The notes under the pieces are model-generated. The model saw only the letters and a list, made by a program, of their open reading frames with translations, had not been told where the DNA came from and searched no databases. Below are positions 17,461 through 60,049 of a stretch of DNA of 64,000 nucleotides, one piece after another (the stretch's first letter is position 1; every line of letters begins with the position of its first letter). Source of the DNA: Kordia sp. TARA_039_SRF (GTDB lineage: Bacteria > Bacteroidota > Bacteroidia > Flavobacteriales > Flavobacteriaceae); NCBI GenBank assembly GCA_006383075.2, contig SMNH02000003.1:178496-242495 (forward strand), written 5' to 3'. A program made the translations under genes and the position numbers.

Positions 17461-17593
17461 ATGAGACTGTCTAAAAAGTTATTAGAAACGTCATTCTGAG
17501 CTTGACTCAGAATCTCATCATGCTGATTATTAAATGTTATGAGAAGCCGAATCAAGTTCGGCTTGACGAACTAGACTTTTTAGACAGCCTCAT
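17461..17593. repeat. 133-bp inverted-repeat element carrying two pentaloop hairpin units
   Basis: The outer 19 bp at each end are inverted copies with a single mismatch (ATGAGACTGTCTAAAAAGT at 17461-17479, and the reverse complement of 17575-17593). Inside lie two small perfect hairpins with 8-bp stems: 17493-17513 (loop CTTGA) and 17544-17564 (loop TCAAG). No ORF. It looks like a non-autonomous MITE-like element between two genes. Confidence 0.8.
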
Positions 17594-17611
17594 ATATTCA
17601 CGATTATGAAC

Positions 17612-20389
17612 TTACTTTTTTAAGATTTTAATACTTGAATTTCCTTTTGTAGTCGCGATGTTTAAAATATACAATCCAGCAGGTAAGTTTGCCATGTCTA
17701 CTTGATTTGTATGTTGCGAACGTACAACAACTTGTCCCATCGTATTCAACACTTCGATAGTGGTGACCGTTTCATTCGTTTTTATAGAAACTGAGGAGGA
17801 AGTTGGATTTGGGTACGCAATAATTTCTGCGCTTGTAGCTTCTATATCATCAACGCTTAGCGGAACAGAGTTAAACTCATACGCACCAAGATCTACTGTA
17901 GTATTCGCAAAACGAGCATTCCCCGATAAGTCTGCATTTCCAAACAAATTGGCATCATAAAAAGAATTGGTTCCTTGGTCAATTACCGCCGTAGATGCGC
18001 TTGTTGGTTTGTAGTTGGTATCCAAATTTGGGTTAGCTACGTTGATGTTAAAACCATCGGCATCAACATTTGCAGTATACGGGTATATGCTTGGCATTAC
18101 GCAGTTGTCAATATTCAAGTCTCCAAAATTTCCTTCCGATGTTTTAGAGTTGTCAAAAACAATATCACTAACCGAAGACGTATTGTACAAGTTGTTGTAA
18201 AAGATAGAGTTATGCACGTTTACAATATTATTCAAAGAACCTGTTGCACTAATGTTTATAAGTTGCTTTAAAGTTGTAGAAGAGAAAAAGTTTACATTAT
18301 CAGCAAAAGTCGAATTGACAATTGTACTGTTTATCGTTGATGTGCCTGTTCTTCGAAACCAAATCGCACCAAAGTCTGAAGCACATTGATTGCCAACAAA
18401 TTCAAAGTTTACAAAGTTTGCGGTAATGTTGTTTGCGTTGGAAGACTGCATTAATAGGATACCTGTTGTACCATTTGTAGCATTATTTTTTACAGAAACA
18501 TTGATAAAGTTTACAGTACCGTTAAAGTTTCGGTAATCCATCACCAATCCGCTAGAGTAGTGTTCTTGAATGATGGTATTTTGCAAAGTAAAGTTGTTGG
18601 TGGTGTTTGATTGAAAATCGATGGCAGGATTTTTACTGCCTGAATGTCCATTTTGAATAATGAAACCATCTAGAGTTACAAAACTGGCTCCTACATATAC
18701 CAATTGCGCTAGGTTATCTGTTCTGTTTGTAAATTGATCGTCATAAATATCATCATCATTAACATCACCAGAAATAATTGTAGCATTTGTGGTGTGAATT
18801 AATGAAAAATCTCTGTCATTTTCATCTGTTTCTGTTCCGTCAAAACCACCAATAAGCTTTACTGAAGCATCTGCAATTGTGTATGCGCCTGTTGTTGGTT
18901 TGTATGTGCCTGCTTTTACAAATATTTTTGAGCCAGCACTCACACTTGTAGAGTTTACCGCATCATAAATAGTAGTGTACGCATCTGTCCAACTCGTTCC
19001 ATCATTGTTTCCTGTAGCCGCAGCATCTACATAAATAGTTGCTGCCGGAGCTGGTAATGATAAACTGGCAATATTTCCAGGACCTGTAAACATCGCAGTA
19101 TTTGCATATTGAATAGCGCCTAAGCCAATAATGGTTCCACTAGAGTAAAATCGTCCGTTTTGAAAACAATCGGTAAAAGGCAATTCGTTCGTATCATACG
19201 CGCTGCCATTCGCAGTTCCTGTTTGTCTGTATGCTGGTAGTGGTGCAAAATTTCCTGCAGAAATATCTTCAAAAGGACTTTCTGACAAAAAAATTGAATT
19301 CGGTAATGTATATACTGGAGCAAAATCGAGTGCGTTTGTGCTTCCTAAATCAATACTTGCGGTACTTGCTGTAGCAGTTCCTACAAACTCATTGGTTCCT
19401 GTGTTGTTGTAATAAATATTGTTATACCACCAACCATCAACAGCTCCTGAAGTGCGTTCTAAGCGAATACAACTTGCTAGTGAAGCCGCTACGCCAGTAC
19501 CTTCTTGGTTTAATGCAAGAGTATTGTTAGAAAATCGTACGGTAAGTCCTTGTCCACCATTCGAAATAAAACGCGCAACACTTCCAGAATATCCAGCATC
19601 TGTTACTTTGTTCGCAATGAATAAATTGTTAGCAATGTAAATTTCAACGAATTGACTAAAGTTTCGATATTCAAATGCATATCCTACTTGCGAAACATTT
19701 TCATCCATGATACTGTTTAGCAAGTAAAAGTTCTTTGTCGGATTCGAGGAAGTTCCTGAATTATTCAAAGAACGCATGTCTAAAGCAGGACGAGAAGCTG
19801 CATAGTTTCTTGAAAAACGACAATTCAAAATCGTAATTTTCTTTTGCGTATATCCTGTTTGTGGATGTGGGTAACTGTAAAAAGCACTTCCTCCATACGA
19901 ATGTACTAAGTTGATTCTGTCAATAATGATTTCAGCATTTACATGATCTAAAACAGTTCCACCAACCGTTGTAGGTTCAATTTGTAAAATACGAGTTGCA
20001 TTGTCTGTTTTGTTTGCAGATGTTGCGCTCGGAATTTCGTTGAGATCATCACCATTGATATCACCAGATAAATATACAGGATGCAACCAAGGATCTGTAC
20101 TTCTGTCTGCTCTAATAATTTCGGTGCCGTCAAAGCCACCATAAATATTCACACCGTATTGATTCAAAAATGGCGTAGAAGCGTTTACGGGTGTGTACGT
20201 TCCTTCTGCAATCCAAATTTCTGCGCCTGCAGTAGTCGTGTTGGTAAGTGCATCGTGTAAGGAATTGTAGGCATTTGTCCAACTTGTTCCGTCGTTACTT
20301 CCTGTAGCATCAATATCTACATAAACAACAGTTTGTGCTTGCGAAACAGCAAATACCAACAGGGGAAATAATAGTAGTATTCTTTTCAT
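17612..20389 (-). CDS. T9SS-secreted parallel beta-helix surface protein
   Basis: The 925-residue protein has a signal peptide (MKRILLLFPLLVFAVSQAQ) and two homologous halves, each opening with VDxxATGxNDGTSWTxAY, then IWIAEGTYTP or IFVKAGTYKP and GGFDGTE. This is the pattern of right-handed beta-helix/DUF1565-like repeats. The C-terminal 75 residues are a type A T9SS sorting domain (IIAYPNPTSSSVSIKTN, then GLYILNIATTKGNSSIKILKK). It is likely exported through T9SS and attached to or released from the surface. The kinase and regulator genes upstream are on the same strand, with a 104-bp gap before this gene. Ligand or substrate unknown; no polysaccharide-lyase motif was recognised. Confidence 0.88.
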   Translation of the reverse strand: MKRILLLFPLLVFAVSQAQTVVYVDIDATGSNDGTSWTNAYNSLHDALTNTTTAGAEIWIAEGTYTPVNASTPFLNQYGVNIYGGFDGTEIIRADRSTDPWLHPVYLSGDINGDDLNEIPSATSANKTDNATRILQIEPTTVGGTVLDHVNAEIIIDRINLVHSYGGSAFYSYPHPQTGYTQKKITILNCRFSRNYAASRPALDMRSLNNSGTSSNPTKNFYLLNSIMDENVSQVGYAFEYRNFSQFVEIYIANNLFIANKVTDAGYSGSVARFISNGGQGLTVRFSNNTLALNQEGTGVAASLASCIRLERTSGAVDGWWYNNIYYNNTGTNEFVGTATASTASIDLGSTNALDFAPVYTLPNSIFLSESPFEDISAGNFAPLPAYRQTGTANGSAYDTNELPFTDCFQNGRFYSSGTIIGLGAIQYANTAMFTGPGNIASLSLPAPAATIYVDAAATGNNDGTSWTDAYTTIYDAVNSTSVSAGSKIFVKAGTYKPTTGAYTIADASVKLIGGFDGTETDENDRDFSLIHTTNATIISGDVNDDDIYDDQFTNRTDNLAQLVYVGASFVTLDGFIIQNGHSGSKNPAIDFQSNTTNNFTLQNTIIQEHYSSGLVMDYRNFNGTVNFINVSVKNNATNGTTGILLMQSSNANNITANFVNFEFVGNQCASDFGAIWFRRTGTSTINSTIVNSTFADNVNFFSSTTLKQLINISATGSLNNIVNVHNSIFYNNLYNTSSVSDIVFDNSKTSEGNFGDLNIDNCVMPSIYPYTANVDADGFNINVANPNLDTNYKPTSASTAVIDQGTNSFYDANLFGNADLSGNARFANTTVDLGAYEFNSVPLSVDDIEATSAEIIAYPNPTSSSVSIKTNETVTTIEVLNTMGQVVVRSQHTNQVDMANLPAGLYILNIATTKGNSSIKILKK

Positions 20390-20493
20390 AATGATTTGTG
20401 TTACTTCGTTTAATTTAGAAGCAAAACAACAAATGATTACGCTGTATACAAGTTACATTTTTCTAAATGGGTTCGATTTTTTTCTAAATGAAT

Positions 20494-21246
20494 TTATAGA
20501 AAAGTTTCTTTTACAATAGTGATGAATTGTTCTTTTTTTGACCTAGAAATAGGAATGCGCTTTTGGTTGTTCATTAATAAGAAATCGCCGTCTTCTTTAA
20601 TGAGTTCATCCACATATTTTAAATTGATTAAGTACGAGCGATGACACTTAAAAAACATAGCATTTTCTTCTAGTTGCGCTACAAAATGCTTTAACGGTTT
20701 GCAAATGGTTTTTGTTTTTCCGTTTTTGAGCTGTACGTTGGTATACATACTATCAGCTTCAAAGTAAATGATATCTTCATGCGAAGCAAACATGATTCCT
20801 TTTGGAATTTCGAGCGCAATTTTATTGATGGAAATTTGTTGCAAGGAAGCTCTTAATTTTTCAAATTGTTGCGTTAAATTGTTTGCTTCAATCGCTTCTT
20901 GCGCTTTCAATACAGCGCTTTGTAACTCTAGCGTATCAATCGGTTTTAAGAGATAATCAATTGCAGAAATTTTAAAAGCTTCAATCGCATATTGATTATA
21001 CGCTGTGACGAAAATGATTTTGAAATTGATTGGTTCTTCAAAATAATCTAAAATATCCAATCCAGATTGATTGGGCATTTCAATATCTAAAAACACCAAT
21101 TCAGGTTGTTCTTCTTTAATGACTGAAACACCAGAAGCCAAGTCAGAAGCTTCTAAGGTTTGTTGTATTTGTGGACAATAGGCTGTGATTAACTGCAATA
21201 GTAAATGTCTTGCACGTTTTTCATCGTCAATAATTACAGCTTTCAT
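20494..21246 (-). CDS. LytTR-family response regulator
   Basis: A 250-residue regulator. Residues 1-120 form a receiver domain (MKAVIIDDEKRARHLL, phospho-acceptor Asp in LVFLDIEMPNQSG near residue 55, and Lys in YLLKPID). Residues about 148-250 form a LytTR DNA-binding domain (DIIYFEADSMYTNVQL, FFKCHRSYLINLKYVDEL, RIPISRSKKEQF). It follows its sensor kinase gene with only one base between the two and precedes the T9SS beta-helix protein gene, which is a candidate target. Confidence 0.95.
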   Translation of the reverse strand: MKAVIIDDEKRARHLLLQLITAYCPQIQQTLEASDLASGVSVIKEEQPELVFLDIEMPNQSGLDILDYFEEPINFKIIFVTAYNQYAIEAFKISAIDYLLKPIDTLELQSAVLKAQEAIEANNLTQQFEKLRASLQQISINKIALEIPKGIMFASHEDIIYFEADSMYTNVQLKNGKTKTICKPLKHFVAQLEENAMFFKCHRSYLINLKYVDELIKEDGDFLLMNNQKRIPISRSKKEQFITIVKETFL

Positions 21247-21247
21247 A

Positions 21248-24136
21248 TCAATTGGATTTTAAAGGTATATACATAGACACTTTGGTTCCTGCAGGTTTTT
21301 CGTTTGCCATCATATCTTCTACAGTTACATTAATGTCGTATTTTAAATTGGTATTATAAATATGCACACGTTCTTCGTTGGCTTTGGTAGCAAATGGTTT
21401 GTGTGATTTTTTCTGCGCAGCAATTTCTTTTGCCTTTTCTCGTCCGACACCATTATCTTCAACGGTGATAAACAGTTTTTCGTGTTCTTTTTGGAAAGAA
21501 ATCGTTAGGTTTCTATCTCCTTTTTTATGTAACAAACCATGTTTTAAAGCATTTTCAACATACGGTTGAATAAATAGTGAAGGTACTTTAATTTGCTGTT
21601 TGTTGAGGTTGTTATCAATATTAATTTGATAGTTCAACTCATCTTCAAAACGAACTTTTTCAAGTTGTAAATACAGTTCGAGTGCTTGTATTTCTTCGGC
21701 TAACGTAATTTTGTTTTGTTGACTATATTCTAAGTACATGCGAATTAGTCGACTAAACTTTACCAAATACGAACTCGCCAATTCTTTTTCATTGGAAATG
21801 ATATAATCTTGAATAGAATTCAATGCATTAAAAATAAAATGTGGATTCATTTGCGAGCGGAAATTCTCTAACTGCAAGTTTGCAATTTTCTTTTCCATCA
21901 AAATCTTTTCAATAGCACTGTTTCTTTTTCGTTCTCTCTTTTTAAATTTTTGTAAAAAATAAAACACAATCACGCCAATACAAACCATGCTACAGAGCGC
22001 ATAAAACCATAAAGTTTCCCAAAAAGGTTTTGCAATCGTAAAACGTATGGCAGCAATTTCAGAAAAAGTAGTACCTGCCGTATTTTTTGCTTTCACTTCA
22101 AAGGTGTACGTATTGCTTGCCAAATTGTTGAAAGTGACAAAGCTATTACCACGTTCAATCGTTTGCCATTCGGTGTCAATAGGCTTCAAGCGATATTGAT
22201 AATTCATGTGTTTGTCCGATTGATAGCCTGCCGAATGAAAGTCAAACTTCAGCTTGTTGGTATCATAATCAAAAGTGTACGAATCGCGGACCAACGTGTC
22301 TACATTGTTTACAGCAACAGCATCAATATGGACATTTGCTGTGCGGTACTTTTTAAAAATTAATTGTTCATTTTTCGGGAAGGTATAAAAGTACTTTGGC
22401 GTTGTTAACACTACATGCTTGGAAAGCAATACCATATTTTTTACACTAAAGTCCAAACCGTCTTGTCCTGTTAAAAAATGTAGCGAATTTGTTGTTGGAT
22501 TGAATTTTGCCAAGCCTTTATCAATTGCCAACCATAAGATGTTTTCATCTGCTTTGATAGCGCTAATTTCCAGATTTGCAAATTGTTCAATACTTTTTAC
22601 GATTCCATCAGTATATTGTAAAACCTTCGTGTTTTGTGTCAAAATCCAAACTTGGTTTTTGGTCGCAGTAATGTCACTAACTAAAATTGGGTTGCCATCT
22701 TGTAAAATAGGTGTTTCGTTTCCGTTAGCATCATACAAAAACAAGCCATCTACAAACGCAATCAGGAGTTCTTTATTGGGTAATAGGAGCGAAGTTATCA
22801 CGCGTTTTTCTCGCAACAGTTGTTGCTGCGTGTTCTTGTAAATGATGGCTTCTTTATAGTTTCCATAAAAAACACGGTCTGCATCCAAAATTTGAATACT
22901 TTTTGCAACGGCAAATTTCCGATGTGTATTTTGTAATGTCTTACTTGTTATATTGTACACGTACGATTGCGCATAACTCGTGCTAATAATGAGTTGATTG
23001 TTATACTGATCAAACTGTATCAGTTTCACCACAAGTTTGGAAGGAAGCGTTAGTTCATCAATCAATTTAAAATTTTCATACAAAAGAAGGGTTCCTTGAT
23101 TCGTGCCTATAACAAATGAATTGTCGTTCAATTGGCAACTTGCGGTTATTTTGGAAACTTTAGAAGGCAATTCAAAGGTTTTAATCGCTAAATTAGGAGA
23201 AACCAATACGCCGTTGTCAATAGTTGTAAACCAGTAATTTGCATTAAAATCTTTAATAATATTTGTAATCGATTCTTCTTTAAAAAAATGATTCTCTAAC
23301 AGTAATTTGTCATCTTTTAACGTGTATACAAATACACCAGAAACGGTACAAAACCATACGCTCTCATCAATCGTAACCACATTATAAATGGTTTCTTTAA
23401 GTAGTTCTTTAGGTGTTTTGATAGTCTTAAAATGGTCACTTTTTGCATCATACAAACTAAAAACATACTCCAACTCATCTTTATAAATAAACAACAGTTG
23501 CTGTTTAGTAAGCTTAAATATTTTAGGTGTTTCAACAATAGATTTCGAGTTGATTTTCGCAACTTGTCGTTCTGTAGCATCTTCAATAACTTGTAAAGCA
23601 GGTACTTGATTGATAGGGAAGAAGTAAAAATTATCATTCAACTTACAACTTGCAATTACAGGGTTTGTGGTCAATTGTTGAATTTCCTTTGTGTCTTTAG
23701 AAATTTTAAAAATTCCAGCATTGGTAAACACAACAATAAAATCTTCAGAAACTTCGAAAGTAGCTAGCTGTCCGTTGGTAATATGATTAATATCTAAAAA
23801 AAGGAGTAGTTCATCATTAGCTACATAAAACAACTGACCGTATAAATTAGTACACCAAATTTTACCACTTTTATCTTCCGTTAATCCAAAAACAGCTTTT
23901 CCTTTTTGGGCAACATTGGTAAATTTAGTGTAGGTATAACCGTCATAGCGTAGCAAACCTTTATTCGCGGCAAGCCACATATAATGGTTACTATCTTCCA
24001 AAATATCATAAAACTCACTATACGGTAAATTGGTTACGGCTGTTAAATTATCAGCCACAGGTCGCTGCGAAAAAGCAAACTGTACACCAGTCAAAAACGT
24101 AAAAACGAGGATTAAAAGCCTTACTATTTGAAACAT
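21248..24136 (-). CDS. Propeller-type sensor histidine kinase (LytS-like)
   Basis: A 962-residue membrane kinase. A signal sequence (ends AFS) precedes a large periplasmic region of two-component-regulator propeller repeats (PYSEFYDILEDSNHYMWLAA and many further blades), then a Y_Y_Y domain (QYRLKPIDTEWQTIERGN, NTYTFEVKAKNTAGT) at about 625-695. One membrane helix (TLWFYALCSMVCIGVIVFYF) lies near residue 710. The cytoplasmic part has the His_kinase signature NPHFIFNALNSIQDYI near 760 and a HATPase with QPYVENALKHGL near 858. It forms an operon with the LytTR regulator. The signal is unknown; such propellers often sense glycans or outer-surface cues in Bacteroidetes. A -7-like TAAGTTTG sits at 24152-24159 on the minus strand. 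Confidence 0.95.
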   Translation of the reverse strand: MFQIVRLLILVFTFLTGVQFAFSQRPVADNLTAVTNLPYSEFYDILEDSNHYMWLAANKGLLRYDGYTYTKFTNVAQKGKAVFGLTEDKSGKIWCTNLYGQLFYVANDELLLFLDINHITNGQLATFEVSEDFIVVFTNAGIFKISKDTKEIQQLTTNPVIASCKLNDNFYFFPINQVPALQVIEDATERQVAKINSKSIVETPKIFKLTKQQLLFIYKDELEYVFSLYDAKSDHFKTIKTPKELLKETIYNVVTIDESVWFCTVSGVFVYTLKDDKLLLENHFFKEESITNIIKDFNANYWFTTIDNGVLVSPNLAIKTFELPSKVSKITASCQLNDNSFVIGTNQGTLLLYENFKLIDELTLPSKLVVKLIQFDQYNNQLIISTSYAQSYVYNITSKTLQNTHRKFAVAKSIQILDADRVFYGNYKEAIIYKNTQQQLLREKRVITSLLLPNKELLIAFVDGLFLYDANGNETPILQDGNPILVSDITATKNQVWILTQNTKVLQYTDGIVKSIEQFANLEISAIKADENILWLAIDKGLAKFNPTTNSLHFLTGQDGLDFSVKNMVLLSKHVVLTTPKYFYTFPKNEQLIFKKYRTANVHIDAVAVNNVDTLVRDSYTFDYDTNKLKFDFHSAGYQSDKHMNYQYRLKPIDTEWQTIERGNSFVTFNNLASNTYTFEVKAKNTAGTTFSEIAAIRFTIAKPFWETLWFYALCSMVCIGVIVFYFLQKFKKRERKRNSAIEKILMEKKIANLQLENFRSQMNPHFIFNALNSIQDYIISNEKELASSYLVKFSRLIRMYLEYSQQNKITLAEEIQALELYLQLEKVRFEDELNYQINIDNNLNKQQIKVPSLFIQPYVENALKHGLLHKKGDRNLTISFQKEHEKLFITVEDNGVGREKAKEIAAQKKSHKPFATKANEERVHIYNTNLKYDINVTVEDMMANEKPAGTKVSMYIPLKSN

Positions 24137-24459
24137 ACCAAATTAAAAAAGCAAACTTATCATTTTCTAATTACATCTAGCTTCTTTTTTTTCTGTAGAA
24201 GGGTTATTTCTTTCTAAAATAAAAAGTGAATCAATACTTCGGCAAGCTCAGTGTAAACAGATTAGAAGTTAAAAAGTTTATAAGTTAATAGTTTAGAGAT
24301 TGAAACAAGAAACAGTGTCAACGACTAACCGACAACTCACAGCCAACAACAGACAACAGAGCGCAGCGACCTAATACCCAAAACCCAACACCTAAAACCT
24401 TTCAAAAGTTAGAAGTTTCCACTATCTTTGCCACTTGTCAAAAAAAGAATAAAAGTCGT
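24137..24459. other. 323-bp divergent intergenic region between kinase and ffh
   Basis: It contains the ffh promoter (24400-24430), a fragment reading CTTCGGCAAGCTCAGTGTAA of a kind common as dispersed repeats, and a low-complexity C/A-rich stretch (24320-24395). Part of the latter (AAACCCAACACCTAA) recurs in inverted orientation near 38170-38190. No gene was seen. Confidence 0.6.
24400..24430 (+). promoter_or_regulatory. Promoter of ffh
   Basis: TTTC (24400-24403), exactly 19 bp, then TATCTTTG (24423-24430) fits the Bacteroidetes promoter consensus with one mismatch in the -33 box. The leader to the ATG at 24460 is about 23 bases. Confidence 0.7.
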
Positions 24460-25791
24460 ATGTTTAATAATTTAAGTGAAAAACTCGATAAGGCGTTACA
24501 TGTATTAAAAGGACATGGAAGTATAACGGAAGTAAATGTTGCGGAAACCTTAAAAGAAGTGCGTAGAGCATTGCTTGATGCCGATGTAAACTTTAAAATT
24601 GCGAAAGACTTTACAAAAAGGGTCAAAGAAAAAGCCATTGGACAAAACGTACTGACAACTTTACAGCCAGGACAGTTAATGGTAAAAATCGTAAAGGATG
24701 AATTGACGGAGTTGATGGGTGGAGACGCCGCAGGAATCAACTTGTCAGGGAAACCATCGGTGATTTTAATGTCTGGTTTACAAGGTTCGGGTAAAACGAC
24801 TTTTTCTGGTAAACTAGCCAATTACTTAAAGAACAAAAAAACAAAGAAACCGCTGTTAGTTGCCTGTGATGTATATCGTCCAGCAGCGATTGACCAGCTA
24901 CATGTGGTTGGTGAGCAAATCAACGTTGAGGTATATTCAGACAAAGGAAATAATGATCCTGTTGCGATTGCACAAGCGGGAATTGCACATGCAAAGCAAA
25001 ACGGACACAACGTAGTTATTATTGATACCGCAGGTCGTTTGGCAGTTGATGAAGCCATGATGACCGAAATTGCAAATATTCATAACGCCATTGAACCACA
25101 AGAAACCTTGTTTGTAGTGGATTCTATGACGGGACAAGATGCGGTAAATACAGCAAAAGCCTTTAACGATGTATTAAATTTTGACGGTGTTATTTTAACA
25201 AAGTTAGATGGTGATACGCGTGGTGGAGCTGCAATTTCTATTAAATCTGTAGTCAACAAACCTATCAAATTTATTGGTACGGGTGAAAAGATGGAAGCGA
25301 TTGATGTTTTCTATCCTTCACGTATGGCAGATCGTATTTTGGGAATGGGAGACGTTGTTTCGTTAGTAGAAAGAGCGCAAGAGCAATTTGATGAAGAAGA
25401 AGCTAGAAAATTGCAAAAGAAAATCGCGAAGAACCAATTCGGTTTCGACGATTTCTTAAAGCAAATTCAGCAAGTAAAGAAAATGGGGAACATGAAAGAC
25501 TTGGTCGGCATGATTCCAGGAGCTTCCAAAGCGATGAAAGGTATGGAAATTGAAGACGATGCCTTCAAACATATTGAAGCATTAATCCATTCTATGACAC
25601 CAGCAGAACGCTCAAAACCATCTATGATTAACGCAAGTCGTAAAAAACGTATTGCCAAAGGAGCAGGTCGTTCAGTGCAAGAAATGAATCAACTCTTAAA
25701 GCAATTTGACCAAATGAGCAAAATGATGAAGATGATGCAAGGCGGCGGCGGAAGAAAGCTCATGCAAATGATGAAGGGAATGGGACGTTAA
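24460..25791 (+). CDS. ffh: Signal recognition particle protein Ffh
   Basis: GTPase of the bacterial signal recognition particle. It binds signal peptides on ribosomes with 4.5S RNA and docks to FtsY. In 443 residues: an N domain (MFNNLSEKLDKALHVLKGHG), a G domain with P-loop GLQGSGKTTFSGKLA near 108, DVYRPAAIDQL, DTAGRLAVDE and TKLDGDTRGGAA, and a Met-rich M domain (GMIPGASKAMKGMEIEDDAF, SRKKRIAKGAGRSVQEMNQL) with a Gly-rich tail ending MKGMGR. Length and motif order are normal for the family. Confidence 0.99.
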   Translation: MFNNLSEKLDKALHVLKGHGSITEVNVAETLKEVRRALLDADVNFKIAKDFTKRVKEKAIGQNVLTTLQPGQLMVKIVKDELTELMGGDAAGINLSGKPSVILMSGLQGSGKTTFSGKLANYLKNKKTKKPLLVACDVYRPAAIDQLHVVGEQINVEVYSDKGNNDPVAIAQAGIAHAKQNGHNVVIIDTAGRLAVDEAMMTEIANIHNAIEPQETLFVVDSMTGQDAVNTAKAFNDVLNFDGVILTKLDGDTRGGAAISIKSVVNKPIKFIGTGEKMEAIDVFYPSRMADRILGMGDVVSLVERAQEQFDEEEARKLQKKIAKNQFGFDDFLKQIQQVKKMGNMKDLVGMIPGASKAMKGMEIEDDAFKHIEALIHSMTPAERSKPSMINASRKKRIAKGAGRSVQEMNQLLKQFDQMSKMMKMMQGGGGRKLMQMMKGMGR

Positions 25792-25804
25792 TTGAAGTTA
25801 ACAG

Positions 25805-27874: not shown

Positions 27875-27878
27875 TACC

Positions 27879-38161: not shown

Positions 38162-38206
38162 ATTTTTAGGTATTAGGTGTTGGGTTTTAGGTGTTCTTTG
38201 TCTTTT

Positions 38207-38231
38207 GTCATTCCTGCGTAGGCAGGAATCT
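38207..38231. repeat. Short palindromic hairpin between kinase and regulator
   Basis: GTC, then an 8-bp perfect stem ATTCCTGC/GCAGGAAT with loop GTAG, then CT. It resembles the pentaloop hairpin units elsewhere in the window in its outer bases (GTCATTC...GAATCT). Confidence 0.7.
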
Positions 38232-45820: not shown

Positions 45821-45873
45821 AAATCGAGCGCAGTTGGGAATATTTTGAATTCTTCACTGCGCTCGATTTTTTT
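45821..45873 (+). terminator. Terminator of the CBM9-like gene
   Basis: A 14-bp perfect stem AAATCGAGCGCAGT/ACTGCGCTCGATTT with a 21-base loop is followed by T. Confidence 0.92.
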
Positions 45874-45904: not shown

Positions 45905-45991
45905 TTCGTCAAACCAAACTTGATTTGGTTTCCCATAACAGTGAGATAGCTACGACAGCACTAATTTGTGACCTTGAATCAAGTTCAAGGT
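45905..45991. repeat. Two pentaloop hairpin units in opposite orientation
   Basis: 45905-45939 is the unit in minus orientation: TTCGTC, then the perfect stem AAACCAAA/TTTGGTTT with loop CTTGA, then CCCATAAC. 45971-45991 is a second hairpin, stem ACCTTGAA/TTCAAGGT with loop TCAAG. These match the units at 17489-17518, 17536-17570 and 60015-60049 in loop, stem length and flanks while the stem sequences differ. Confidence 0.82.
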
Positions 45992-46017
45992 GCCGTTAGG
46001 ATGTTTACGGAAGTTTT

Positions 46018-51880: not shown

Positions 51881-51971
51881 TTTAGTTTTTCTGATTAGGC
51901 TTTTTGAAAATTTCAATGAAGTTCGAAGTAATCAATTATCTATCAAATTGGCACATTTTCAAATCATCAAA

Positions 51972-52676: not shown

Positions 52677-52740
52677 CACAAATACAATAGAGCACAAAAG
52701 TACAGCAAGTTCATGAACTTTATGACAACATTCACAATTA

Positions 52741-53017: not shown

Positions 53018-53659
53018 ATGAAAAAAATATTAATACTTATGGGAATTTTATCCTTCTTTGGTTGTGGAGCAAAAGACTTATCACCGAAAGAAACTGAATT
53101 AGTAAATAAGTTAGATTTTAATATCGAACTTATGAAAGAACTTAAAAAAGAAACCAAAAATGGATTGATTCAGTTGCCAGCAATCGACCAAGAAACAGCT
53201 GATGTTTTGGATGAATTTTATAACGGAATTTACGCAAGTGTTTCAGAAGAAAAAGCGAACTCGATAGTAAAAAAGTTAAAAGAAAAATTTAGAGCAAAAG
53301 GATATTTAATATTTGCTTTTACAAAAGAAGAAGATTCAAAATGCATAGGAGTTATAAAAGGAACTAACGACCTTGATATTTTGCGATATAGAAGAACCGA
53401 CGGAATTAACCACGATTACGAAAATGACGATATCGTTGCGAAAATATCGGAATGGAACGAAAGATTTGGACTCACTGTAATTGGCTGCGGACGAGATTGG
53501 CTCGAATTGGAATTTAAAAAATTACCGACTGATTTGGACGCTTTTTCAGAAGAGGTTTATGAATTCTGCCCTGATTCAGTTGACCAAGGAGTTGGAGAAG
53601 TAGAAAATTTAAAAGCATTAATAAAAGAAATGAACGGAATATGGTTGTGGTGGGACTAA
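53018..53659 (+). CDS. DUF4253-domain lipoprotein
   Basis: The 213-residue product has a lipoprotein signal (MKKILILMGILSFFGC, Cys 16). Residues about 100-213 match the DUF4253 pattern: LDILRYRRTDGINHDYENDD, KISEWNERFGLTVIGCGRDW and LPTDLDAFSEEVYEFCPDSV, ending GIWLWWD. The function of DUF4253 is unknown; it is found in toxin/immunity-rich and cassette regions of many bacteria. It is the first of three consecutive lipoprotein genes with cassette-like boundaries. Confidence 0.85.
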   Translation: MKKILILMGILSFFGCGAKDLSPKETELVNKLDFNIELMKELKKETKNGLIQLPAIDQETADVLDEFYNGIYASVSEEKANSIVKKLKEKFRAKGYLIFAFTKEEDSKCIGVIKGTNDLDILRYRRTDGINHDYENDDIVAKISEWNERFGLTVIGCGRDWLELEFKKLPTDLDAFSEEVYEFCPDSVDQGVGEVENLKALIKEMNGIWLWWD

Positions 53660-53741
53660 AAAAGTACTTGTAAAAGTTTTATTTAGGTACGTAACTACCT
53701 ATAGTCATAAAGTTGTGTAAAATTTAAAGACTGAACTATAA

Positions 53742-54800
53742 ATGAAATTTACTACTAAATTAATCTTGTTCTTAGCAACCTTATTTTTGTTTAATTGTTC
53801 TTCCGATAAGAAGAAAACTCTACAATTAGATGGAGAAGTTAAAGGTGCTGATACCAAATCAATTATGTTAATCAAACCTAACCAAGATACTAGATTTGAT
53901 TCAATAATACAGATTCCAGTCATTGAGGGGAAATTTTACTATGAAGAAGAACTTCAAAATCCAGAGGTCGTATATTTAGCATTTGCAGAAAGCGTAAAAA
54001 AAGGAACTTACAGACCAATGCCTTTATTTTTAGAAAACGAAAAAATTAATTTGACCATTTTTCCAGAAGAAGAATTTGATAAAAATATAGTCAAGGGAGG
54101 AAATTTGAACATTAAATACCAAAATTATAAAAAAGAAGCAGGCTCTTTATTTAATTCTAAAGATTGGGAAAAACAACTAAAATGGGAGCAAGAGTATTAT
54201 ATTCCTCAAAACCCTAATTTGATATCATATTACCTTTTTTTAGACCAATTAAGATATTTTAAAGAAAACCTCAATTTGGATTTAGTTAAAAATAACTATA
54301 AAAAATTATCAGAGAGCAATCCAAACCATCCTTATAACGAATTAGCTTCAAACTTAATTACCGCAATTGAGAATATAAAAATCGGCAAAAAATACACTGA
54401 CTTTTCCGCACCTGATTTAAATGGAAATGAAATCAAACTTTCTGAAAAAATTAATGGAAAATTAGCATTATTAGATTTATGGGCTACTTGGTGCGGACCT
54501 TGTATCGCTAAAAGTAGAACAATGGTTCCTCTCTACAACGAATACAAAGACAAAGGATTTACAATTATTGGAGTTGCTGGGGAATTTAAAAATACAGATA
54601 GACTTGTAAAGTTCCTTGAAAAAGAAAAATGGGAATGGACAAACCTTGTCGAACTAGACAGACAAAACAATATTTGGCAAAAATATGGAGTCGATGGTGG
54701 CGGTGGCGGAATATTCCTAATTGACGAAAATGGAATAATATTAGCAAAAGACCCAACCGCAGAAGAAGTTAGAATGGAATTAGAAACTCGATTGAATTAA
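53742..54800 (+). CDS. TlpA-like thioredoxin-fold lipoprotein (DUF4369 N-domain)
   Basis: The 352-residue product has a lipobox (FLFNC, Cys 19), a DUF4369-type N-terminal domain (LDGEVKGADTKSIMLIKPNQ, at about 28-125), a helical linker and a C-terminal AhpC/TSA-type thioredoxin domain from about 215: DFSAPDLNGNEIKLSEKING, then LLDLWATWCGPCIAKSR with the redox pair CGPC near 250, and GGIFLIDENGIILAKDPTAE with the cis-Pro position replaced by a Gly-rich loop (GVDGGGGGIF). It is likely a periplasmic thiol reductase. The missing cis-Pro is notable, since most thioredoxin folds have Pro there. Confidence 0.9.
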   Translation: MKFTTKLILFLATLFLFNCSSDKKKTLQLDGEVKGADTKSIMLIKPNQDTRFDSIIQIPVIEGKFYYEEELQNPEVVYLAFAESVKKGTYRPMPLFLENEKINLTIFPEEEFDKNIVKGGNLNIKYQNYKKEAGSLFNSKDWEKQLKWEQEYYIPQNPNLISYYLFLDQLRYFKENLNLDLVKNNYKKLSESNPNHPYNELASNLITAIENIKIGKKYTDFSAPDLNGNEIKLSEKINGKLALLDLWATWCGPCIAKSRTMVPLYNEYKDKGFTIIGVAGEFKNTDRLVKFLEKEKWEWTNLVELDRQNNIWQKYGVDGGGGGIFLIDENGIILAKDPTAEEVRMELETRLN

Positions 54801-54942
54801 AAAACTTTGCACGACAAAGGTTAAATTTCCTATTCGGCAATTCAACTCATTTTACTAAATTAGGCGCGTCAGCGGAAAGCACTCGCGCACTTTTCCATTA
54901 CTTATGCTTACACAATACTGTTAGCAAACATTTGATAAAAAC
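54801..54942. other. Cassette-like boundary between two lipoprotein genes
   Basis: In order: TCGGCAATTCAAC, TTTTACTAAATTAG, a GCGCG...CGCGC palindrome (about 54864-54888), then ACACAATACTGTTAGCAAAC just before the next start. The first two words also occur in the 52741-53017 boundary in the same order and spacing style. Confidence 0.55.
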
Positions 54943-55797
54943 GTGAAATATATTCAAATTCTCATATTGATTTTGATTTTTAGTTGTTCGAATAATAAAA
55001 ACAAATTGAATGATAAAGAATTTGGTTTGCAGAATATAGACACACTGAGATATGGATATAACGGATCTAATTATGGAGTACAACTGGATTTATTAAGTGA
55101 TGGACGCTTTATTAACGAAAATTATCTGTTCAGTTGCTTAGGTGGTGGAGAAAGAAAAAAAGTATTCGGAACATATAAAATGGAAAGTTTAAAACTGACT
55201 TTGAATCCCGAAAGAATTGAATTTATTGAATATTCTGAGGATATACCATCAAAACCGAAAATGACCAAAATAAAATACGGGATTGACTCATTAAAAATCA
55301 AAACGGAATTTCAAGTTATAAAATGGGAAAATAATGAATATCTGTTTTCAGAATTCTTTGATTTTGGTTGGAGTTTGGAAAAGGAAAATGACTATATCCG
55401 ATTTGCGGACTATCTAAACAGTGGTTTAGAACCCGAAATGAATGGTATGTATTTAGTTCGTAAAACTACAGATTCAATCACATCTGAATTTGATTTAAAG
55501 CAAATACCTGAAAAATGGCAAAGTTATTTTTTAAAAGAACCTGTATCTGCGAAAATTAAATACATCAAAAAAGTTGTTGACCCAAACGATAAAGAAAATA
55601 TCTCTTGGCTAATAGAATTAGACAAAGGAAAAAATGACAGAATAAATAATAGATTGACCTTACAAACGAAAGATGGAGGGTTTTTTATCGAGGTCGATTC
55701 TGTATTGACGCACAGAAGTTTTGGAATGACTTATATGTATGATTTTACGCTAAAAAAAATTCCAATCGGAACTGAATTAAGAACAAAATGGAAATAA
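54943..55797 (+). CDS. Lipoprotein of unknown function with GTG start
   Basis: The frame opens with GTG at 54943, which gives a clean lipoprotein signal peptide (MKYIQILILILIFSC, Cys 15). No ATG nearby would retain it. The 284-residue product is beta-rich and repetitive in style (YGVQLDLLSDGRFINENYLF, FQVIKWENNEYLFSEFFDFG), with no recognised family. It is third in a row of lipoprotein genes and shares AT-rich codon use with them. Confidence 0.7.
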   Translation: MKYIQILILILIFSCSNNKNKLNDKEFGLQNIDTLRYGYNGSNYGVQLDLLSDGRFINENYLFSCLGGGERKKVFGTYKMESLKLTLNPERIEFIEYSEDIPSKPKMTKIKYGIDSLKIKTEFQVIKWENNEYLFSEFFDFGWSLEKENDYIRFADYLNSGLEPEMNGMYLVRKTTDSITSEFDLKQIPEKWQSYFLKEPVSAKIKYIKKVVDPNDKENISWLIELDKGKNDRINNRLTLQTKDGGFFIEVDSVLTHRSFGMTYMYDFTLKKIPIGTELRTKWK

Positions 55798-56326
55798 AAA
55801 TACGTTTGCTAACGTCAGTTCTAAACCGAAAATTAACCCATAACTGACGGTTGCACGCAACTGTTACATACTTCACTACATCTCTCATTCCTATGTAATT
55901 CTCCTGAATCCAACAAGATGTGCTTGCTAGTATGAATACAAATGAAATTAAAAAAATAACTATAGTTGGAGTATTGTAAATTCAATAAAAATAACACAGT
56001 GCTGATTTTTTTAACAATTAGCAGCAGAGCATCGTACATCATTACTTTATTCAAAAGTAAAGGATAAAGAAATTTTCAATCTATTCAATCCTAAAAAAGC
56101 AACGACGCCTTACAAATGGAGTCGTCGTTGCGGTTGTTAACTATAACCTAAATAATTAACAAAACTTGCTAACCCTTAAAAATCCCCCAATTTATAAGGC
56201 TAGGCCTTCACTTTTTCATGAAAAAATGACGTTGTAATTATGGTTTGTTTCTCTAAAGTGTCATGTTGTGTATTTTGTTACCCAATACATCTAAAAAAAT
56301 GTGTGTATTTTTGCTTTTTAAGATAA
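55798..56326. other. 529-bp intergenic region with boundary remnant and hairpins
   Basis: Just after the gene, GTTTGCTAACGTCAGTT (to 55820) pairs with AACTGACGGTT (55842-55852), a hairpin followed by GCACGCAACTGTTAC; this is similar in words (GCTAAC, CTGTTA) to the other boundaries. A second perfect 9-bp hairpin GCAACGACG/CGTCGTTGC lies at 56099-56131. TATTTTTG at 56306-56313 is a good -7 box for the gene at 56327. No ORF was seen. Confidence 0.55.
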
Positions 56327-56839
56327 ATGTGCATGCAAGATATCATTGATGATTTGCCTCAAAAGGCAAAAGAAGTTGAAAAAGAGAACCAAAAGTTCTT
56401 TCATAAGCTACGAAAGAAAGCGCCCAAAAATTTAGATTACATCATGCAAGAATTGCACGAGGAAGAATTTTCAACAACAGATTGTCTTGCTTGTGCCAAT
56501 TGCTGTAAAACGACGAGTCCAATATTTACAAATGCAGATATTGCACGTATTTCCAAGCATTTTTGCATGAAAGAACACCAATTCATCAGTCAGTTTTTAT
56601 ACTTTGATGAAGACAATCATTATGTGTTGCAAAATGCACCGTGTCATTTTTTGGGAGCAGACAATGAATGCATGATTTATGATGTACGTCCCAAAGCGTG
56701 CCGTGAATATCCACATACCGACCGCAAAAAATTTCACAAAATTTCAGACATCACCATGAACAATATTGCCATTTGTCCTGCGACGTATAATATTGTAGAA
56801 AAACTCAAATCGGTGATTGAAAGTAAAGGTAAACGATAG
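56327..56839 (+). CDS. YkgJ-family cysteine-cluster protein
   Basis: The 170-residue cytoplasmic protein has the zinc or iron-chelating Cys pattern of the family: DCLACANCCKTTSP near residue 64, APCHFLGADNECMIYDVRPK with ACREYP near 104-128, and ICPATYN near 149. The N-terminal helix (QKAKEVEKENQKFFHKLRKK) is usual in Bacteroidetes members. It probably binds a metal cluster; the physiological role is unknown. First gene of a four-gene run, with a 55-bp gap to the next. Confidence 0.9.
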   Translation: MCMQDIIDDLPQKAKEVEKENQKFFHKLRKKAPKNLDYIMQELHEEEFSTTDCLACANCCKTTSPIFTNADIARISKHFCMKEHQFISQFLYFDEDNHYVLQNAPCHFLGADNECMIYDVRPKACREYPHTDRKKFHKISDITMNNIAICPATYNIVEKLKSVIESKGKR

Positions 56840-56894
56840 TTTGGACTAATTTTTAGAAAATTGTATCTTTAAAAACACACAAAAACCTACAAAA

Positions 56895-57746
56895 TTGGAT
56901 ACTATTTTAGCATATTTTGACAACATTCCATCATCGCATCGAAGCCTGATTTTAGTAGGCGGAATTGCATTTTTTTGGTTGATAGAATATATTATTCCGC
57001 TATTTCGATTTAACTATAAAAAAGTAAATCATGCTGGAATTAACATCTTTTTTACGCTAACAACCATCGTAGTCAACTTTGTATTGGCGTTTTTACTACT
57101 AAAAGTTTCCGATTGGACAGTCGCCAACAAATTTGGAGTATTACAATGGATTGATTTGCAATTTCCAGAACTATCCGCGTGGTGGTATGTGTTAATCGGA
57201 GTTGCGTTGCTGGACTTTATTGGCGCTTGGCTCGCACATTACGTAGAACACAGAGTGCCGTTTTTTTGGCGATTCCATTTGGTGCATCATACCGATACGC
57301 ATGTAGATACGACAACGGCAAACAGACATCACCCGGGCGAAAGTGTCATTCGTTTTGCCTTTACACTGTTAGGAGTTTTTATTGTGGGCGCGCCTGTCGC
57401 GATTATCATGTTGTACCAATCGATGTCGGTGGTATTATCACAGTTCAATCATGCGAATATCCACATTCCAAAAAAAGTAGATAAATGGATTAGTTATGTC
57501 ATTGTTTCACCAAACATGCACAAAGTTCATCATCATCATGTATTGCCGTATACAGATACCAATTATGGAAACATTTTCTCTATTTGGGATCATATCTTTA
57601 GAACCTTCGCTGTGAAAGACCCAAATACCTTAGTGTATGGTGTAGACACGTATCCAGATGCGTCTGAAAATGCCAATTTAAAAAGTCTGTTAAAAATTCC
57701 ATTCAATAAATATCGTCCGCCAACAACGCTCAACGCGGATGAATAA
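56895..57746 (+). CDS. Sterol desaturase/fatty acid hydroxylase family membrane enzyme
   Basis: The 283-residue integral membrane protein has several hydrophobic helices (LILVGGIAFFWLIEYIIPLF, INIFFTLTTIVVNFVLAFLL, WWYVLIGVALLDFIGAWLA) and the di-iron His clusters: HYVEHR, HLVHHTDTHVDTTTANRHHP and HKVHHHHVLPYTDTNYG. These are the eight-His motifs of the family. The substrate (lipid or carotenoid-like) is unknown. The start is TTG 56895: the next in-frame Met lies well past the first helices, so a non-ATG start is required. Its end overlaps by 8 bp the frame of the next gene if that starts at 57739. Confidence 0.92.
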   Translation: MDTILAYFDNIPSSHRSLILVGGIAFFWLIEYIIPLFRFNYKKVNHAGINIFFTLTTIVVNFVLAFLLLKVSDWTVANKFGVLQWIDLQFPELSAWWYVLIGVALLDFIGAWLAHYVEHRVPFFWRFHLVHHTDTHVDTTTANRHHPGESVIRFAFTLLGVFIVGAPVAIIMLYQSMSVVLSQFNHANIHIPKKVDKWISYVIVSPNMHKVHHHHVLPYTDTNYGNIFSIWDHIFRTFAVKDPNTLVYGVDTYPDASENANLKSLLKIPFNKYRPPTTLNADE

Positions 57747-57756
57747 TTGTATACTC

Positions 57757-58647
57757 ATGAAATCACTTTTACGAAGTTCTTTCGCGTTATTGTTGCTGTT
57801 ACTAGTACAGTGCAAAGAAAATACTTCCCAAAAACAACACTCAAAAATGATAGACATTCAAGGGCATCGCGGTTGTAGAGGATTGTTCCCTGAAAATTCC
57901 ATGATTGGATTTGAAAAAGCCATCGAATTGGGCGTACATACGTTAGAATTGGATGTTGTGATTTCAAAAGATAAAAAAGTAGTGGTTTCGCATGAACCAT
58001 TCATGAATCATGAAATTGCGCTCGATGTACAAGGAAATTCAATTCCAAAAAGTGATGAGCTGAATTACAATCTCTATCAAATGAATTACGACAGCATTCG
58101 TCAATACGATTGCGGTAGCAAACATCATCCACGATTTCCAAATCAAGAAAAAATAAAAGTTGCAAAACCGTTGCTTTCTGAGGTGATCCAAATGGCGGAA
58201 GCAAAGACTGAAAAAACAATACGATACAATATCGAAATAAAACGTACACCTTCAAATGATGAAATATTTACGCCTAAAGTAGCAGAATTTGTACGTTTGG
58301 TAATAGACGTCATTCAAAAACACGATTTGAGCAATCGTGTTAACTTGCAAGCATTTGATTTGGAAACCTTAGAAGAAATCAAAAAACAAGCGCCTTCGAT
58401 AAAAATTGCACTATTAGTAGATGGCGGCGAATCCATCGATGAAAAACTACAACAATTGAGTTTTTCACCAGAAATCATCAGTCCGTACTATAAATTATTG
58501 ACGCAAAAAAATATCGAAAACTATAAAAAGAAGCAGTTTTTAATCATTCCGTGGACGGTCAATAAAAAAAGTGACATGCTCCAACTCATCGATTGGAACG
58601 TGGACGGAATTATCACAGATTATCCCAATTTAATAACCAATCCTTAA
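57757..58647 (+). CDS. Glycerophosphodiester phosphodiesterase lipoprotein
   Basis: Hydrolyses glycerophosphodiesters to glycerol-3-phosphate and an alcohol. I chose ATG 57757 (MKSLLRSSFALLLLLLVQC), because it gives a compact lipoprotein signal with Cys 19; an upstream ATG at 57739 also exists. The domain starts QGHRGCRGLFPENSMIGFEK (catalytic His and Arg), then HTLELDVVISKDKKVVVSHE (metal Glu/Asp and second His), KTIRYNIEIKRTP-like strand and IPWTVNKKSDMLQLIDWNVD near the C-terminus. Probably periplasm-facing. Co-transcribed with the desaturase and glycosyltransferase. Confidence 0.93.
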   Translation: MKSLLRSSFALLLLLLVQCKENTSQKQHSKMIDIQGHRGCRGLFPENSMIGFEKAIELGVHTLELDVVISKDKKVVVSHEPFMNHEIALDVQGNSIPKSDELNYNLYQMNYDSIRQYDCGSKHHPRFPNQEKIKVAKPLLSEVIQMAEAKTEKTIRYNIEIKRTPSNDEIFTPKVAEFVRLVIDVIQKHDLSNRVNLQAFDLETLEEIKKQAPSIKIALLVDGGESIDEKLQQLSFSPEIISPYYKLLTQKNIENYKKKQFLIIPWTVNKKSDMLQLIDWNVDGIITDYPNLITNP

Positions 58648-58653
58648 AAATCC

Positions 58654-59889
58654 ATGCAACACGTGTTAGTCATCGGCTATGTGTGGCCAGAACCGAATTC
58701 ATCAGCCGCAGGAACGCGTATGTTGCAATTATTACAACTCTTTCGAGCAGAAAAATGGCACGTAACTTTTGCGTGTCCCGCAGCAAAAAGTGCGTTTTGT
58801 GTAGACTTACGTCAGATGGATATTGCGACCAAAACCATTCAAATTAACGATAGTAGCTTTGACGAATTCATCAAAAAATTGCAGCCAACTATTGTACTGT
58901 TTGATCGTTTTATGATGGAAGAACAATTCGGTTGGCGTGTGACTGAAAATTGTCCAGAAGCCTTACGAATTCTCGATGCGGAAGATTTACACAGCCTGCG
59001 AAAAGCGCGTCATCAAGCCTTAAAAGATGGAAAAGAGTTTCATATTGACCAATTAAAAAATTACCAATTGGCGCAACGGGAAATTGCGAGTATTCTGCGC
59101 TGTGATATTTCGCTATTGATTTCAGAAGTTGAACGCGATATGCTTATCAATGAGTTTAACATTGACGAAGCGTTGTTGTTGTACATTCCGTTTATGTTGG
59201 ATGAAATTCGACAAGAAGACAAAGAAAAGTTACCCACTTTTGAAGCGCGACAACATTTTGTTACGATTGGAAACTTTCTACACGCGCCCAATCGTGATGT
59301 GGTTTTGTATCTGAAAAAGGAAATTTGGCCAATCTTGCGAAAAAAACTACCAAAAGCCGAGATGCAGGTGTACGGGTCGTATGCGAAAGAACACAATTTA
59401 CAACTCAATCAACCGAAGGAACGCTTTTTTGTAAAAGGCAGAGCGGAAAGTGCGGCTGAGGTCATCAAAAATGCACGAATTGTATTAGCGCCGTTGCGTT
59501 TTGGCGCGGGACTCAAAGGAAAGTTCATCGATGCGATGCAAAACGGAACACCTTGTGCAACAACGTCTATCGGCGCAGAAGGCATGCATGGCAATTTGTC
59601 TTGGAACGGAATTATTTCAGACAATGTAGAAACTTTGATTGAAGAAACCGTCAAACTGTATACAGACAAAAATCGTTGGTTGAAAGCGCAGGAAAATGGT
59701 TTTGAAATCATACAAAAGCGATATCATAAACAGTTCTTTCAACAGCAACTTTTAGATAAAATTCAAAACACTCAACAACATTTAGAAAAGCACCGTACAC
59801 AAAACTTCTTTGGAAGCATGTTACAATTGCACCACATGAAAAGCACCAAATATATGTCACTTTGGATTGAGGGAAAGAATAAAGATTAG
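58654..59889 (+). CDS. Family 4-like glycosyltransferase (GT-B fold)
   Basis: The 411-residue cytoplasmic protein has an N-terminal Rossmann part (HVLVIGYVWPEPNSSAAGTR, EALRILDAEDLHSLRKARHQ) and a C-terminal donor-binding domain (FVTIGNFLHAPNRDVVLYLK, VYGSYAKEHN, then IVLAPLRFGAGLKGKFIDAM and GTPCATTSIGAEGM), as in glycosyltransferases 4/1. The sugar donor and acceptor are unknown. It lies 6 bp after the glycerophosphodiesterase gene and ends the operon. Confidence 0.9.
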   Translation: MQHVLVIGYVWPEPNSSAAGTRMLQLLQLFRAEKWHVTFACPAAKSAFCVDLRQMDIATKTIQINDSSFDEFIKKLQPTIVLFDRFMMEEQFGWRVTENCPEALRILDAEDLHSLRKARHQALKDGKEFHIDQLKNYQLAQREIASILRCDISLLISEVERDMLINEFNIDEALLLYIPFMLDEIRQEDKEKLPTFEARQHFVTIGNFLHAPNRDVVLYLKKEIWPILRKKLPKAEMQVYGSYAKEHNLQLNQPKERFFVKGRAESAAEVIKNARIVLAPLRFGAGLKGKFIDAMQNGTPCATTSIGAEGMHGNLSWNGIISDNVETLIEETVKLYTDKNRWLKAQENGFEIIQKRYHKQFFQQQLLDKIQNTQQHLEKHRTQNFFGSMLQLHHMKSTKYMSLWIEGKNKD

Positions 59890-60014
59890 TATGGCAATTT
59901 GATAATTGCTTTTTTGATATATTTTAAAAATTAATTTACAGAAACATTACAGTCGTCTCATTGATTTCTATGACAAAAGAGCAAGTAGTAGTTTTTGTTG
60001 AAAATTTTAGTTGC

Positions 60015-60049
60015 TTTATGGGAAGCTGAATCGAGTTCAGCTTGACGAA
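60015..60049 (+). repeat. Pentaloop hairpin unit
   Basis: TTTATGGG, perfect stem AAGCTGAA/TTCAGCTT with loop TCGAG, then GACGAA. It differs from the unit at 17536-17570 by a compensated C-G to T-A change in the stem and a single loop base. Confidence 0.85.

What the first reader, a model, noticed from the sequence alone, without database searches (positions are those of the whole stretch)
17489..60049. Dispersed 35-bp hairpin unit with co-varying stems and constant pentaloop
Four intergenic copies (17489-17518 minus, 17536-17570 plus, 45905-45939 minus, 60015-60049 plus) share flanks TTATGRG and GACGAA (part of them in the first copy) and a loop TCAAG (one TCGAG), joined by perfect 8-bp stems. 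The stem sequences differ between copies (ATTCTGAG, AAGCCGAA, AAACCAAA, AAGCTGAA), yet every change is compensated. A fifth hairpin at 45971-45991 (ACCTTGAA stem, same loop) and one at 38207-38231 with a tetraloop look related. Variable stem with fixed loop and flanks implies selection on structure, or a copying mechanism that acts on folded DNA. They come as opposed pairs in two of the sites.
Basis: seen in the sequence. Interest (0 to 1): 0.7.

Follow-up and report, generated by a model that had tools for sequence, protein, structure and literature searches.

The report
Mobile terminators built from REP hairpins
The scattered hairpins belong to a known class of bacterial repeat (CGTC-tagged REPs), but here pairs of them ride inside a larger hairpin that appears to have taken the place of ordinary gene-end (terminator) signals in this genus of marine bacteria.

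Summary
The genome (a Kordia) holds at least 144 copies. Among 70 listed pattern hits at up to 2 mismatches, with stems unconstrained by the pattern, 550 of 560 stem cells pair. Tag, stem, loop, tail and outward dimers fit the published CGTC-tagged REPs, reported to lack a dedicated transposase (PMC3733652). None of the 38 lies between divergent genes. In sister genomes, 15 of 17 composite sites with a dimer-free ortholog show, in at least one relative, an intrinsic terminator with an unrelated stem (judged by eye), so the composite appears to have replaced native terminators. Composites also occur inverted in place (2 of 5 shared with G002) or reduced to the bare outer stem (3 sites). The unit has no hit at 15 REP-transposase loci of the genus. 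Class membership is not new; the terminator-replacing composite appears to be. Termination in vivo and the way it moves are unproven.

The parts
17460..17479 (.). Left arm of the outer, terminator-like stem (TATGAGACTGTCTAAAAAGT)
   Evidence: sequence; pairs with 17575-17594; outer stem covaries in 29 composites
17489..17520 (+). CGTC REP 'B' unit (stem ATTCTGAG, loop CTTGA, tail TCTCATC)
17537..17570 (-). CGTC REP 'A' unit (stem AAGCCGAA, loop CTTGA, tail TCTCATAA); 50 bp start-to-start from B, tags outward
17575..17594 (.). Right arm of the outer stem (ACTTTTTAGACAGCCTCATA)
   Evidence: the stretch 17452-17604 folds with z = -9.3 (RNA) and -9.7 (DNA) against shuffles; R2 hit at window 17457-17598
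45905..45938 (+). CGTC REP 'A' unit (stem AAACCAAA)
45961..45994 (-). Decayed partner unit (tag CGGC, stem ACCTTGAA) completing a tags-outward pair; no clear outer stem by eye
   Evidence: sequence
60016..60049 (-). CGTC REP singlet of subgroup 'AAGCTGAA'
59953..60170 (-). Approximate extent of the repeat of about 200 bp that carries the subgroup-'AAGCTGAA' singlets (20 own copies aligned)
   Evidence: limits approximate
38206..38230 (+). CGTC-1-like REP (TGTC tag, stem ATTCCTGC, 4-nt loop GTAG)
   Evidence: (sequence) against the description in PMC3733652

Best explanation
The unit is a CGTC-tagged REP. Its paired form in this genus is mostly carried in a ~134-bp palindromic composite: A-tract, outer stem (typically RRCTGTYTNNAAAGT), REP A, short apical stem, REP B inverted, outer stem, T-tract. 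Shown: the architecture, covariation of outer and inner stems, position just downstream of stop codons, and intrinsic-terminator-like hairpins with other stems at the same sites in sister genomes. Inferred: the composite terminates transcription in both directions, and it is tolerated because it supplies the terminator it displaces. Least certain: how it moves. I favour DNA-level exchange at the folded terminator (template switching or annealing between the A/T tracts of two hairpins). The same process would copy one arm onto the other (compensated stems), flip the interior, and delete the interior to leave a bare stem. I put that movement step alone at about 0.4; the confidence below is for the composite as a terminator that replaced native ones.
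For: Copy number and pairing. 38 of 42 close pairs have tags outward, 36 of those at 47-55 bp start-to-start. Outer stem: 12 of 17 pairs with double changes, covariation score 0.409 against 0.193 for shuffles (the 29 composites were chosen for outer-stem score >=12, of 38). 0 of 38 dimers between divergent genes, 18 convergent, 20 codirectional; 34 of 38 within 65 bp of a stop codon. 52 of 54 dimer-free orthologous stretches have a terminator-like hairpin against 16 of 216 shuffles. At 15 of 17 sites at least one relative has an unrelated stem; at 14 of the 15 two or more relatives share a similar one (by eye). Distances from gene to hairpin foot agree between own composite and G002 hairpin (10 sites, 9 unrelated stems and 1 bare stem; r = 0.98 left, 0.93 right). 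Inversion in place at L001 and L077; bare stem in G002 at L004, L006, L051. No unit at 15 RAYT loci.
Against: No transcript data: termination is inferred from shape and place only. At both paired sites in the window a separate terminator of the left-hand gene remains (17382-17417 and about 45821-45873), so replacement there is not of that terminator. 9 of 38 dimers score under 12 for the outer stem. The swap is within 2 nt on both sides at only 3 of 9 sites with an unrelated G002 stem; others shift by 5-20 nt on at least one side. G008 at the window site has neither composite nor a clear terminator (by eye). 'Unrelated stem' is my judgement by eye. Template switching between distant loci through 7-9 nt of A/T is, to my knowledge, not a documented route for such spread.
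Confidence: 0.7

Rival explanations
1. Simple insertion, then loss (a rival for the movement step only). A transposase acting in trans inserts the composite at or near a terminator's A- or T-tract; the now redundant native hairpin is later deleted by slippage between the two T-tracts.
For: REP doublets (REPINs) are proposed to move with RAYTs (PMC3116915, passages). T-tract slippage would also give exact-looking swaps. The divergence between genomes leaves ample time for loss.
Against: 2 of 36 composites have another terminator-like hairpin within 110 bp by a detector that finds 52 of 54 in orthologous stretches; it did miss the left-gene terminator at the window site. No linked RAYT; other transposase classes were not tested.
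Confidence: 0.35
2. Insertion into the loop of a special host terminator class. The RRCTGTYT stem is a host terminator and the REP dimer merely inserts into its tip.
For: G002 has the same stem without dimer at L004, L006 and L051; bare stems occur in G012 and G008 (L335, L336). In 72 non-Kordia loci the near-relative 6-mer CTGTCA is the commonest in terminator stems (16 of 156 hairpins).
Against: At 15 of 17 sites relatives carry an unrelated stem, so the stem arrived too. CTGTCT and CTGTTT occur in 0 of those 156 hairpins (the loci surround one gene family and are no random sample). L168 keeps part of a REP inside a bare stem, which points to loss.
Confidence: 0.18
3. Structured regulatory RNA (an attenuator or riboswitch-like element) selected at each site for a cellular function.
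For: Strong covariation in the arms.
Against: Sits after genes, never between divergent genes in 38; presence varies between sister genomes at the same gene; no Rfam family matched in the window at gathering thresholds; unit counts vary from 1 to at least 117 across the genus.
Confidence: 0.04
4. MITE of a DDE transposase, the outer stem being its terminal inverted repeat.
For: Ends conserved with different interiors in other genera (L328, L329, L295).
Against: Arms covary instead of staying constant; no evident target duplication by eye; of 13 places with the end motif away from units in the own genome, 10 were read and lie in what look like coding stretches or bare terminators, 3 were not read.
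Confidence: 0.06

Closest known systems
CGTC-tagged REPs, families 1 and 2 (Di Nocera et al. 2013, PMC3733652; abstract, one section and passages seen)
   Same: CGTC tag (also TGTC), 8-bp stem beginning with A-T pairs, 5-nt (family 2) or 4-nt (family 1) loop, short tail, tags-outward ('HH') heterodimers, no linked transposase; Bacteroidetes already listed as hosts
   Different: The covarying terminator-like outer stem and replacement of native terminators are not in the passages I saw. They do report H. [quoted passage not shown] variabilis GTAG-15 dimers in long palindromes.
REPINs with RAYTs (Bertels and Rainey 2011, PMC3116915; passages seen)
   Same: Inverted REP doublet folding into a long hairpin; compensatory changes; doublet as unit
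   Different: No RAYT linked to the unit here; CGTC not GTAG (the GTAG tag of Pseudomonas REPs is taken from PMC3733652); outer terminator stem
BIMEs as bidirectional terminators and 'mobile attenuators' (Naville and Gautheret 2010, PMC2965389; passages seen, authors' names recalled)
   Same: Repeated or mobile sequence acting as a terminator
   Different: There IS or prophage terminators, or BIMEs, upstream of genes; here hairpins at gene ends are replaced
Quasipalindrome template-switch mutation (PMC7202029; abstract and introduction seen)
   Same: Arm-to-arm correction that makes inverted repeats more perfect
   Different: Local event; not shown there to move a hairpin between loci

Membership tests
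CGTC-tagged REP | CGTC (or TGTC/CCTC) motif at one end | tested here: met
   GTC invariant in 40 picked copies and the C before it at least 90%; GTC is part of the pattern that selected them, so the test leans towards it
CGTC-tagged REP | 8-9 bp stem, first pairs A-T | tested here: met
   8-bp stem; first pair A-U in 39 of 40 copies; stem not part of the pattern
CGTC-tagged REP | 4-5 nt loop and short unpaired tail, mostly CCA | tested here: met
   loop CTTGA; tail C-Y-C-A; both are part of the selecting pattern
CGTC-tagged REP | mostly HH (tags outward) dimers among dimers | tested here: met
   38 of 42 close pairs
CGTC-tagged REP | no associated transposase gene | tested here: met
   0 hits at 15 RAYT loci of the genus; other transposase classes not tested
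REPIN moved by a RAYT | RAYT flanked by the same REP | tested here: not met
   own RAYT flanked by GTTGGAGCGAGTT repeats
Intrinsic terminator | stable stem followed by a T-tract, downstream of genes | tested here: met
Intrinsic terminator | RNA 3' ends at the element in vivo | not testable with these tools
   no transcript data
MITE | constant terminal inverted repeats shared with an IS | tested here: not met
   arms covary; no IS with these ends recognised in the places read (10 of 13)
MITE | target-site duplication | tested here: inconclusive
   none evident by eye at the empty sites, but the flanks are A/T-rich

The most novel reading that the evidence does not exclude
Terminator hairpins can be exchanged between loci as folded units without a dedicated transposase. 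A REP-headed hairpin spreads by displacing native terminators through their A/T tracts, and the same process proofreads its arms, flips it and strips its interior. This would answer how CGTC REPs spread without a transposase.
Probability: 0.3. Interest if true: 0.85.

Novelty: new variant of a known kind. Interest (0 to 1): 0.6.

Why it matters
CGTC REPs were left in 2013 with an open question: what moves them, if anything. The Kordia genomes give matched filled and empty sites at orthologous genes, and suggest that the unit there is a terminator cassette that takes over native terminators. That makes the movement testable, offers a reason why such repeats are tolerated, and points to gene-end terminators as a class of site that a repeat can colonise without evident harm.

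Tried and rejected
RAYT mobilisation of this unit: rejected as the local explanation. Rfam: no family in the window at gathering thresholds. IS or MITE with the outer motif as ends: 38 motif hits in the own genome against 20 for the reversed pattern; of 13 places away from units I read 10, and they lie in what look like coding stretches or in two bare terminators (L168, L170). Reading the 'AAGCTGAA' singlets as composites: no, they belong to another repeat. One search failed on a script error and was redone; one search's neighbour-hairpin count was too strict and is replaced. One search asked for the outer motif in 72 non-Kordia loci and found 1 (L295). In one search the R2 matches in L316 have a poor outer stem; I do not count them as composites.

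Papers: in the listings of searches I saw none on hairpin-for-hairpin terminator replacement; several listings were cut (for example 25 of 285, 20 of 24, 12 of 22, 10 of 14), and the library holds open-licence papers only. PMC3733652: abstract, one section and passages; PMC12306157, PMC2965389, PMC3116915: passages; PMC7202029: abstract and introduction; PMC6006769: listing only.

Full report
WHAT IS THERE. The four copies in the window are as described and are not chance (4 matches, shuffles mean 0.08). The window lies in contig C3 of a 4.59-Mb draft genome of 27 contigs. Among named records the closest relative of the protein of gene 15326-17335 is in Kordia periserrulae DSM 25731 (91% identity), so the host is a Kordia. 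Genome-wide there are 114 pattern matches (control 8) and at least 144 covariance-model hits (150 of 2426 candidates scored), in 102 clusters: 60 singlets and 42 close pairs. 38 of the 42 pairs have their tags outward, and 36 of those lie 47-55 bp apart start to start. The pattern says nothing about the stems; of the 70 listed matches with up to 2 mismatches, 550 of 560 stem cells pair. In 40 distinct copies picked from 74 distinct listed ones (7 stemless and 27 other ones left out), 96.9% of 320 cells pair and 7 of 8 pairs show changes on both sides; the covariation score exceeds all 500 shuffles, the bare count of double-changed pairs does not (25 of 500 as high).

WHAT IT IS CALLED. The abstract, one section and passages of Di Nocera et al. 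2013 (PMC3733652) describe CGTC-tagged REPs: CGTC end, 8-9 bp stems starting with A-T pairs, 4-5 nt loops, short tails, mostly tags-outward dimers, hosts including Bacteroidetes, and no associated transposase. The unit fits each of these. The hairpin at 38206 fits their family 1 (4-nt loop). The hairpin at 45971 reads as a decayed partner that completes a pair with 45905.

Reading the flanks of the copies showed that most outward pairs lie inside a third palindrome. In 38 dimers held (30 own, 8 from relatives), the best outer stem scores a median of 16 against 6 for shuffled flanks; 29 of 38 reach 12 or more. In those 29 (chosen for that score), 12 of 17 outer pairs have changes on both sides, and the covariation score is 0.409 against 0.193 for shuffles and at most 0.174 for slid registers; the number of pair types stands out less (22 of 500 shuffles as high). 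The CGTC tag can pair with the partner's GACG, but these pairs hardly vary and so give no covariation evidence. The window composite folds at z = -9.7 as DNA, into a junction of outer stem, two REP hairpins and an apical stem; as RNA (z = -9.3) its best fold is one long rod in which the two REPs pair with each other. It has an A-rich stretch before and a T-rich stretch after the outer stem, which in most copies is the form of a bidirectional intrinsic terminator. None of the 38 dimers lies between divergent genes; 18 are convergent and 20 codirectional (with mechanically called ORFs), and 34 of 38 lie within 65 bp of a stop codon.

TERMINATOR REPLACEMENT. I searched for the genes on both sides of 22 own composites in five other genomes of the genus and fetched intergenic stretches. 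Three composites gave no stretch that I used (L070 and L152: only one side found; L084: flanks 1 kb apart in G002, not fetched). At two (L005 in G002; L077 in G002 and G010) the relatives fetched also had a composite. For 17, at least one dimer-free orthologous stretch was read (54 stretches). 52 of the 54 contain a terminator-like hairpin scoring 20 or more, against 16 of 216 shuffled stretches. At 15 of 17 sites one or more relatives carry a stem that by eye is unrelated to the composite's; at 14 of those 15 (not L039) two or more relatives share a similar stem (for example GCGCAAT..ATTGCGC in five genomes at L032; CGCTTT..AAAGCG in five at L024; CCCGAAA with its complement in four at L020). 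I infer that the native hairpin is the older state and the composite the derived one. At the other two sites (L004, L006) only G002 was read, with a bare outer stem. Of 9 sites with an unrelated stem in G002, L019, L021 and L068 are almost exact exchanges: A-tract and T-tract kept, 0-2 nt difference in distance to the genes on both sides. L024, L032, L039, L043 and L089 differ by 5-20 nt on at least one side. L066 differs by 10-11 nt as computed, because the tool's native stem includes a CATAAAAAAA/TTTTTTTATG foot. Another terminator-like hairpin lies within 110 bp of 2 of 36 composites; the scan missed the left-gene terminator at the window site, so this is a low estimate.

OTHER CHANGES IN PLACE. 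Of five composites shared by the own genome and G002 (L001, L005, L020, L077, L088), two have the interior inverted inside the outer stem (L001, L077), L001 with an identical outer stem. At L005 one outer pair changed on both sides between the two genomes. At L004, L006 and L051 G002 has the outer stem with no dimer; at L051 other relatives show an unrelated stem, so loss of the dimer is the simpler reading there. L168 in the own genome keeps a piece of REP A in a bare stem. At the window site G010 has a composite in the opposite orientation and G008 has none.

WIDER RANGE. The 144-position composite model hits all 11 genomes of the genus and 21 of 40 genomes searched (both strands are counted and totals are capped, so numbers are no copy counts; the best G008 and G012 matches are bare stems). 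Unit counts in the genus run from 1 to at least 117 (capped). In other genera, one of them in another family, a similar outer stem encloses different GTCA-type hairpins (L328, L329; L295, Ichthyenterobacterium), so the outer stem seems a conserved part of the element. In 72 non-Kordia loci none of 156 terminator-like hairpins carries CTGTCT or CTGTTT, though CTGTCA is the commonest 6-mer there (16 hairpins); the loci surround one gene family and are no random sample.

WHAT MOVES IT. Not shown. The own genome has one REP-associated tyrosine transposase (NF047646, 100.9 bits), flanked on both sides by another hairpin repeat. In the genus 7 of 11 genomes have a match to that family (5 above its cut-off); G002, G009 and G010 have none but hold 65, 55 and 67 units; G008 has none and 1 unit. 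The unit has no hit in the 15 loci around these genes. Two mechanisms fit: exchange of folded hairpins through A/T tracts (template switching), which would also explain compensated arms, flips and bare stems; or insertion by an unknown enzyme followed by loss of the redundant native hairpin through T-tract slippage. Compensatory change is known for REPINs (PMC3116915, passages), and template switching makes quasipalindromes more perfect in E. coli (PMC7202029, abstract and introduction). Movement of a hairpin between loci by that route is my inference.

VERDICT. Known class, new arrangement: a REP-headed mobile terminator that appears to replace native terminators. Interest 0.6.

Noticed in passing
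window 59953-60170; 20 own copies aligned: The 60016 singlet belongs to a repeat of about 200 bp that seems to hold further degenerate CGTC-like hairpins; it is distinct from the terminator composite.
   Followed up: partly
L009:1348-2090 (G000:C5): The only REP-associated tyrosine transposase found in the own genome is flanked on both sides by GTTGGAGCGAGTTTGYAACTCGTTCCAAC hairpins, a candidate cognate REP of its own; the pattern found no further copies in the own loci held.
   Followed up: partly
L128, L133, L136, L137 (G005), L129, L134 (G004), L132, L135 (G006): Split, partial or stop-bearing matches to REP-associated transposase genes in sister genomes.
   Followed up: no
L187 (G002), L196 (G010): Where the own genome has composite L079, these two relatives carry what looks like a small Cys-rich peptide gene between the same neighbours (by eye).
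   Followed up: no
window 17382-17417: The terminator of the left-hand gene (RGCYGYCT-like stem) is seen at the same place in several genomes of the genus and remains beside the composite.
   Followed up: partly
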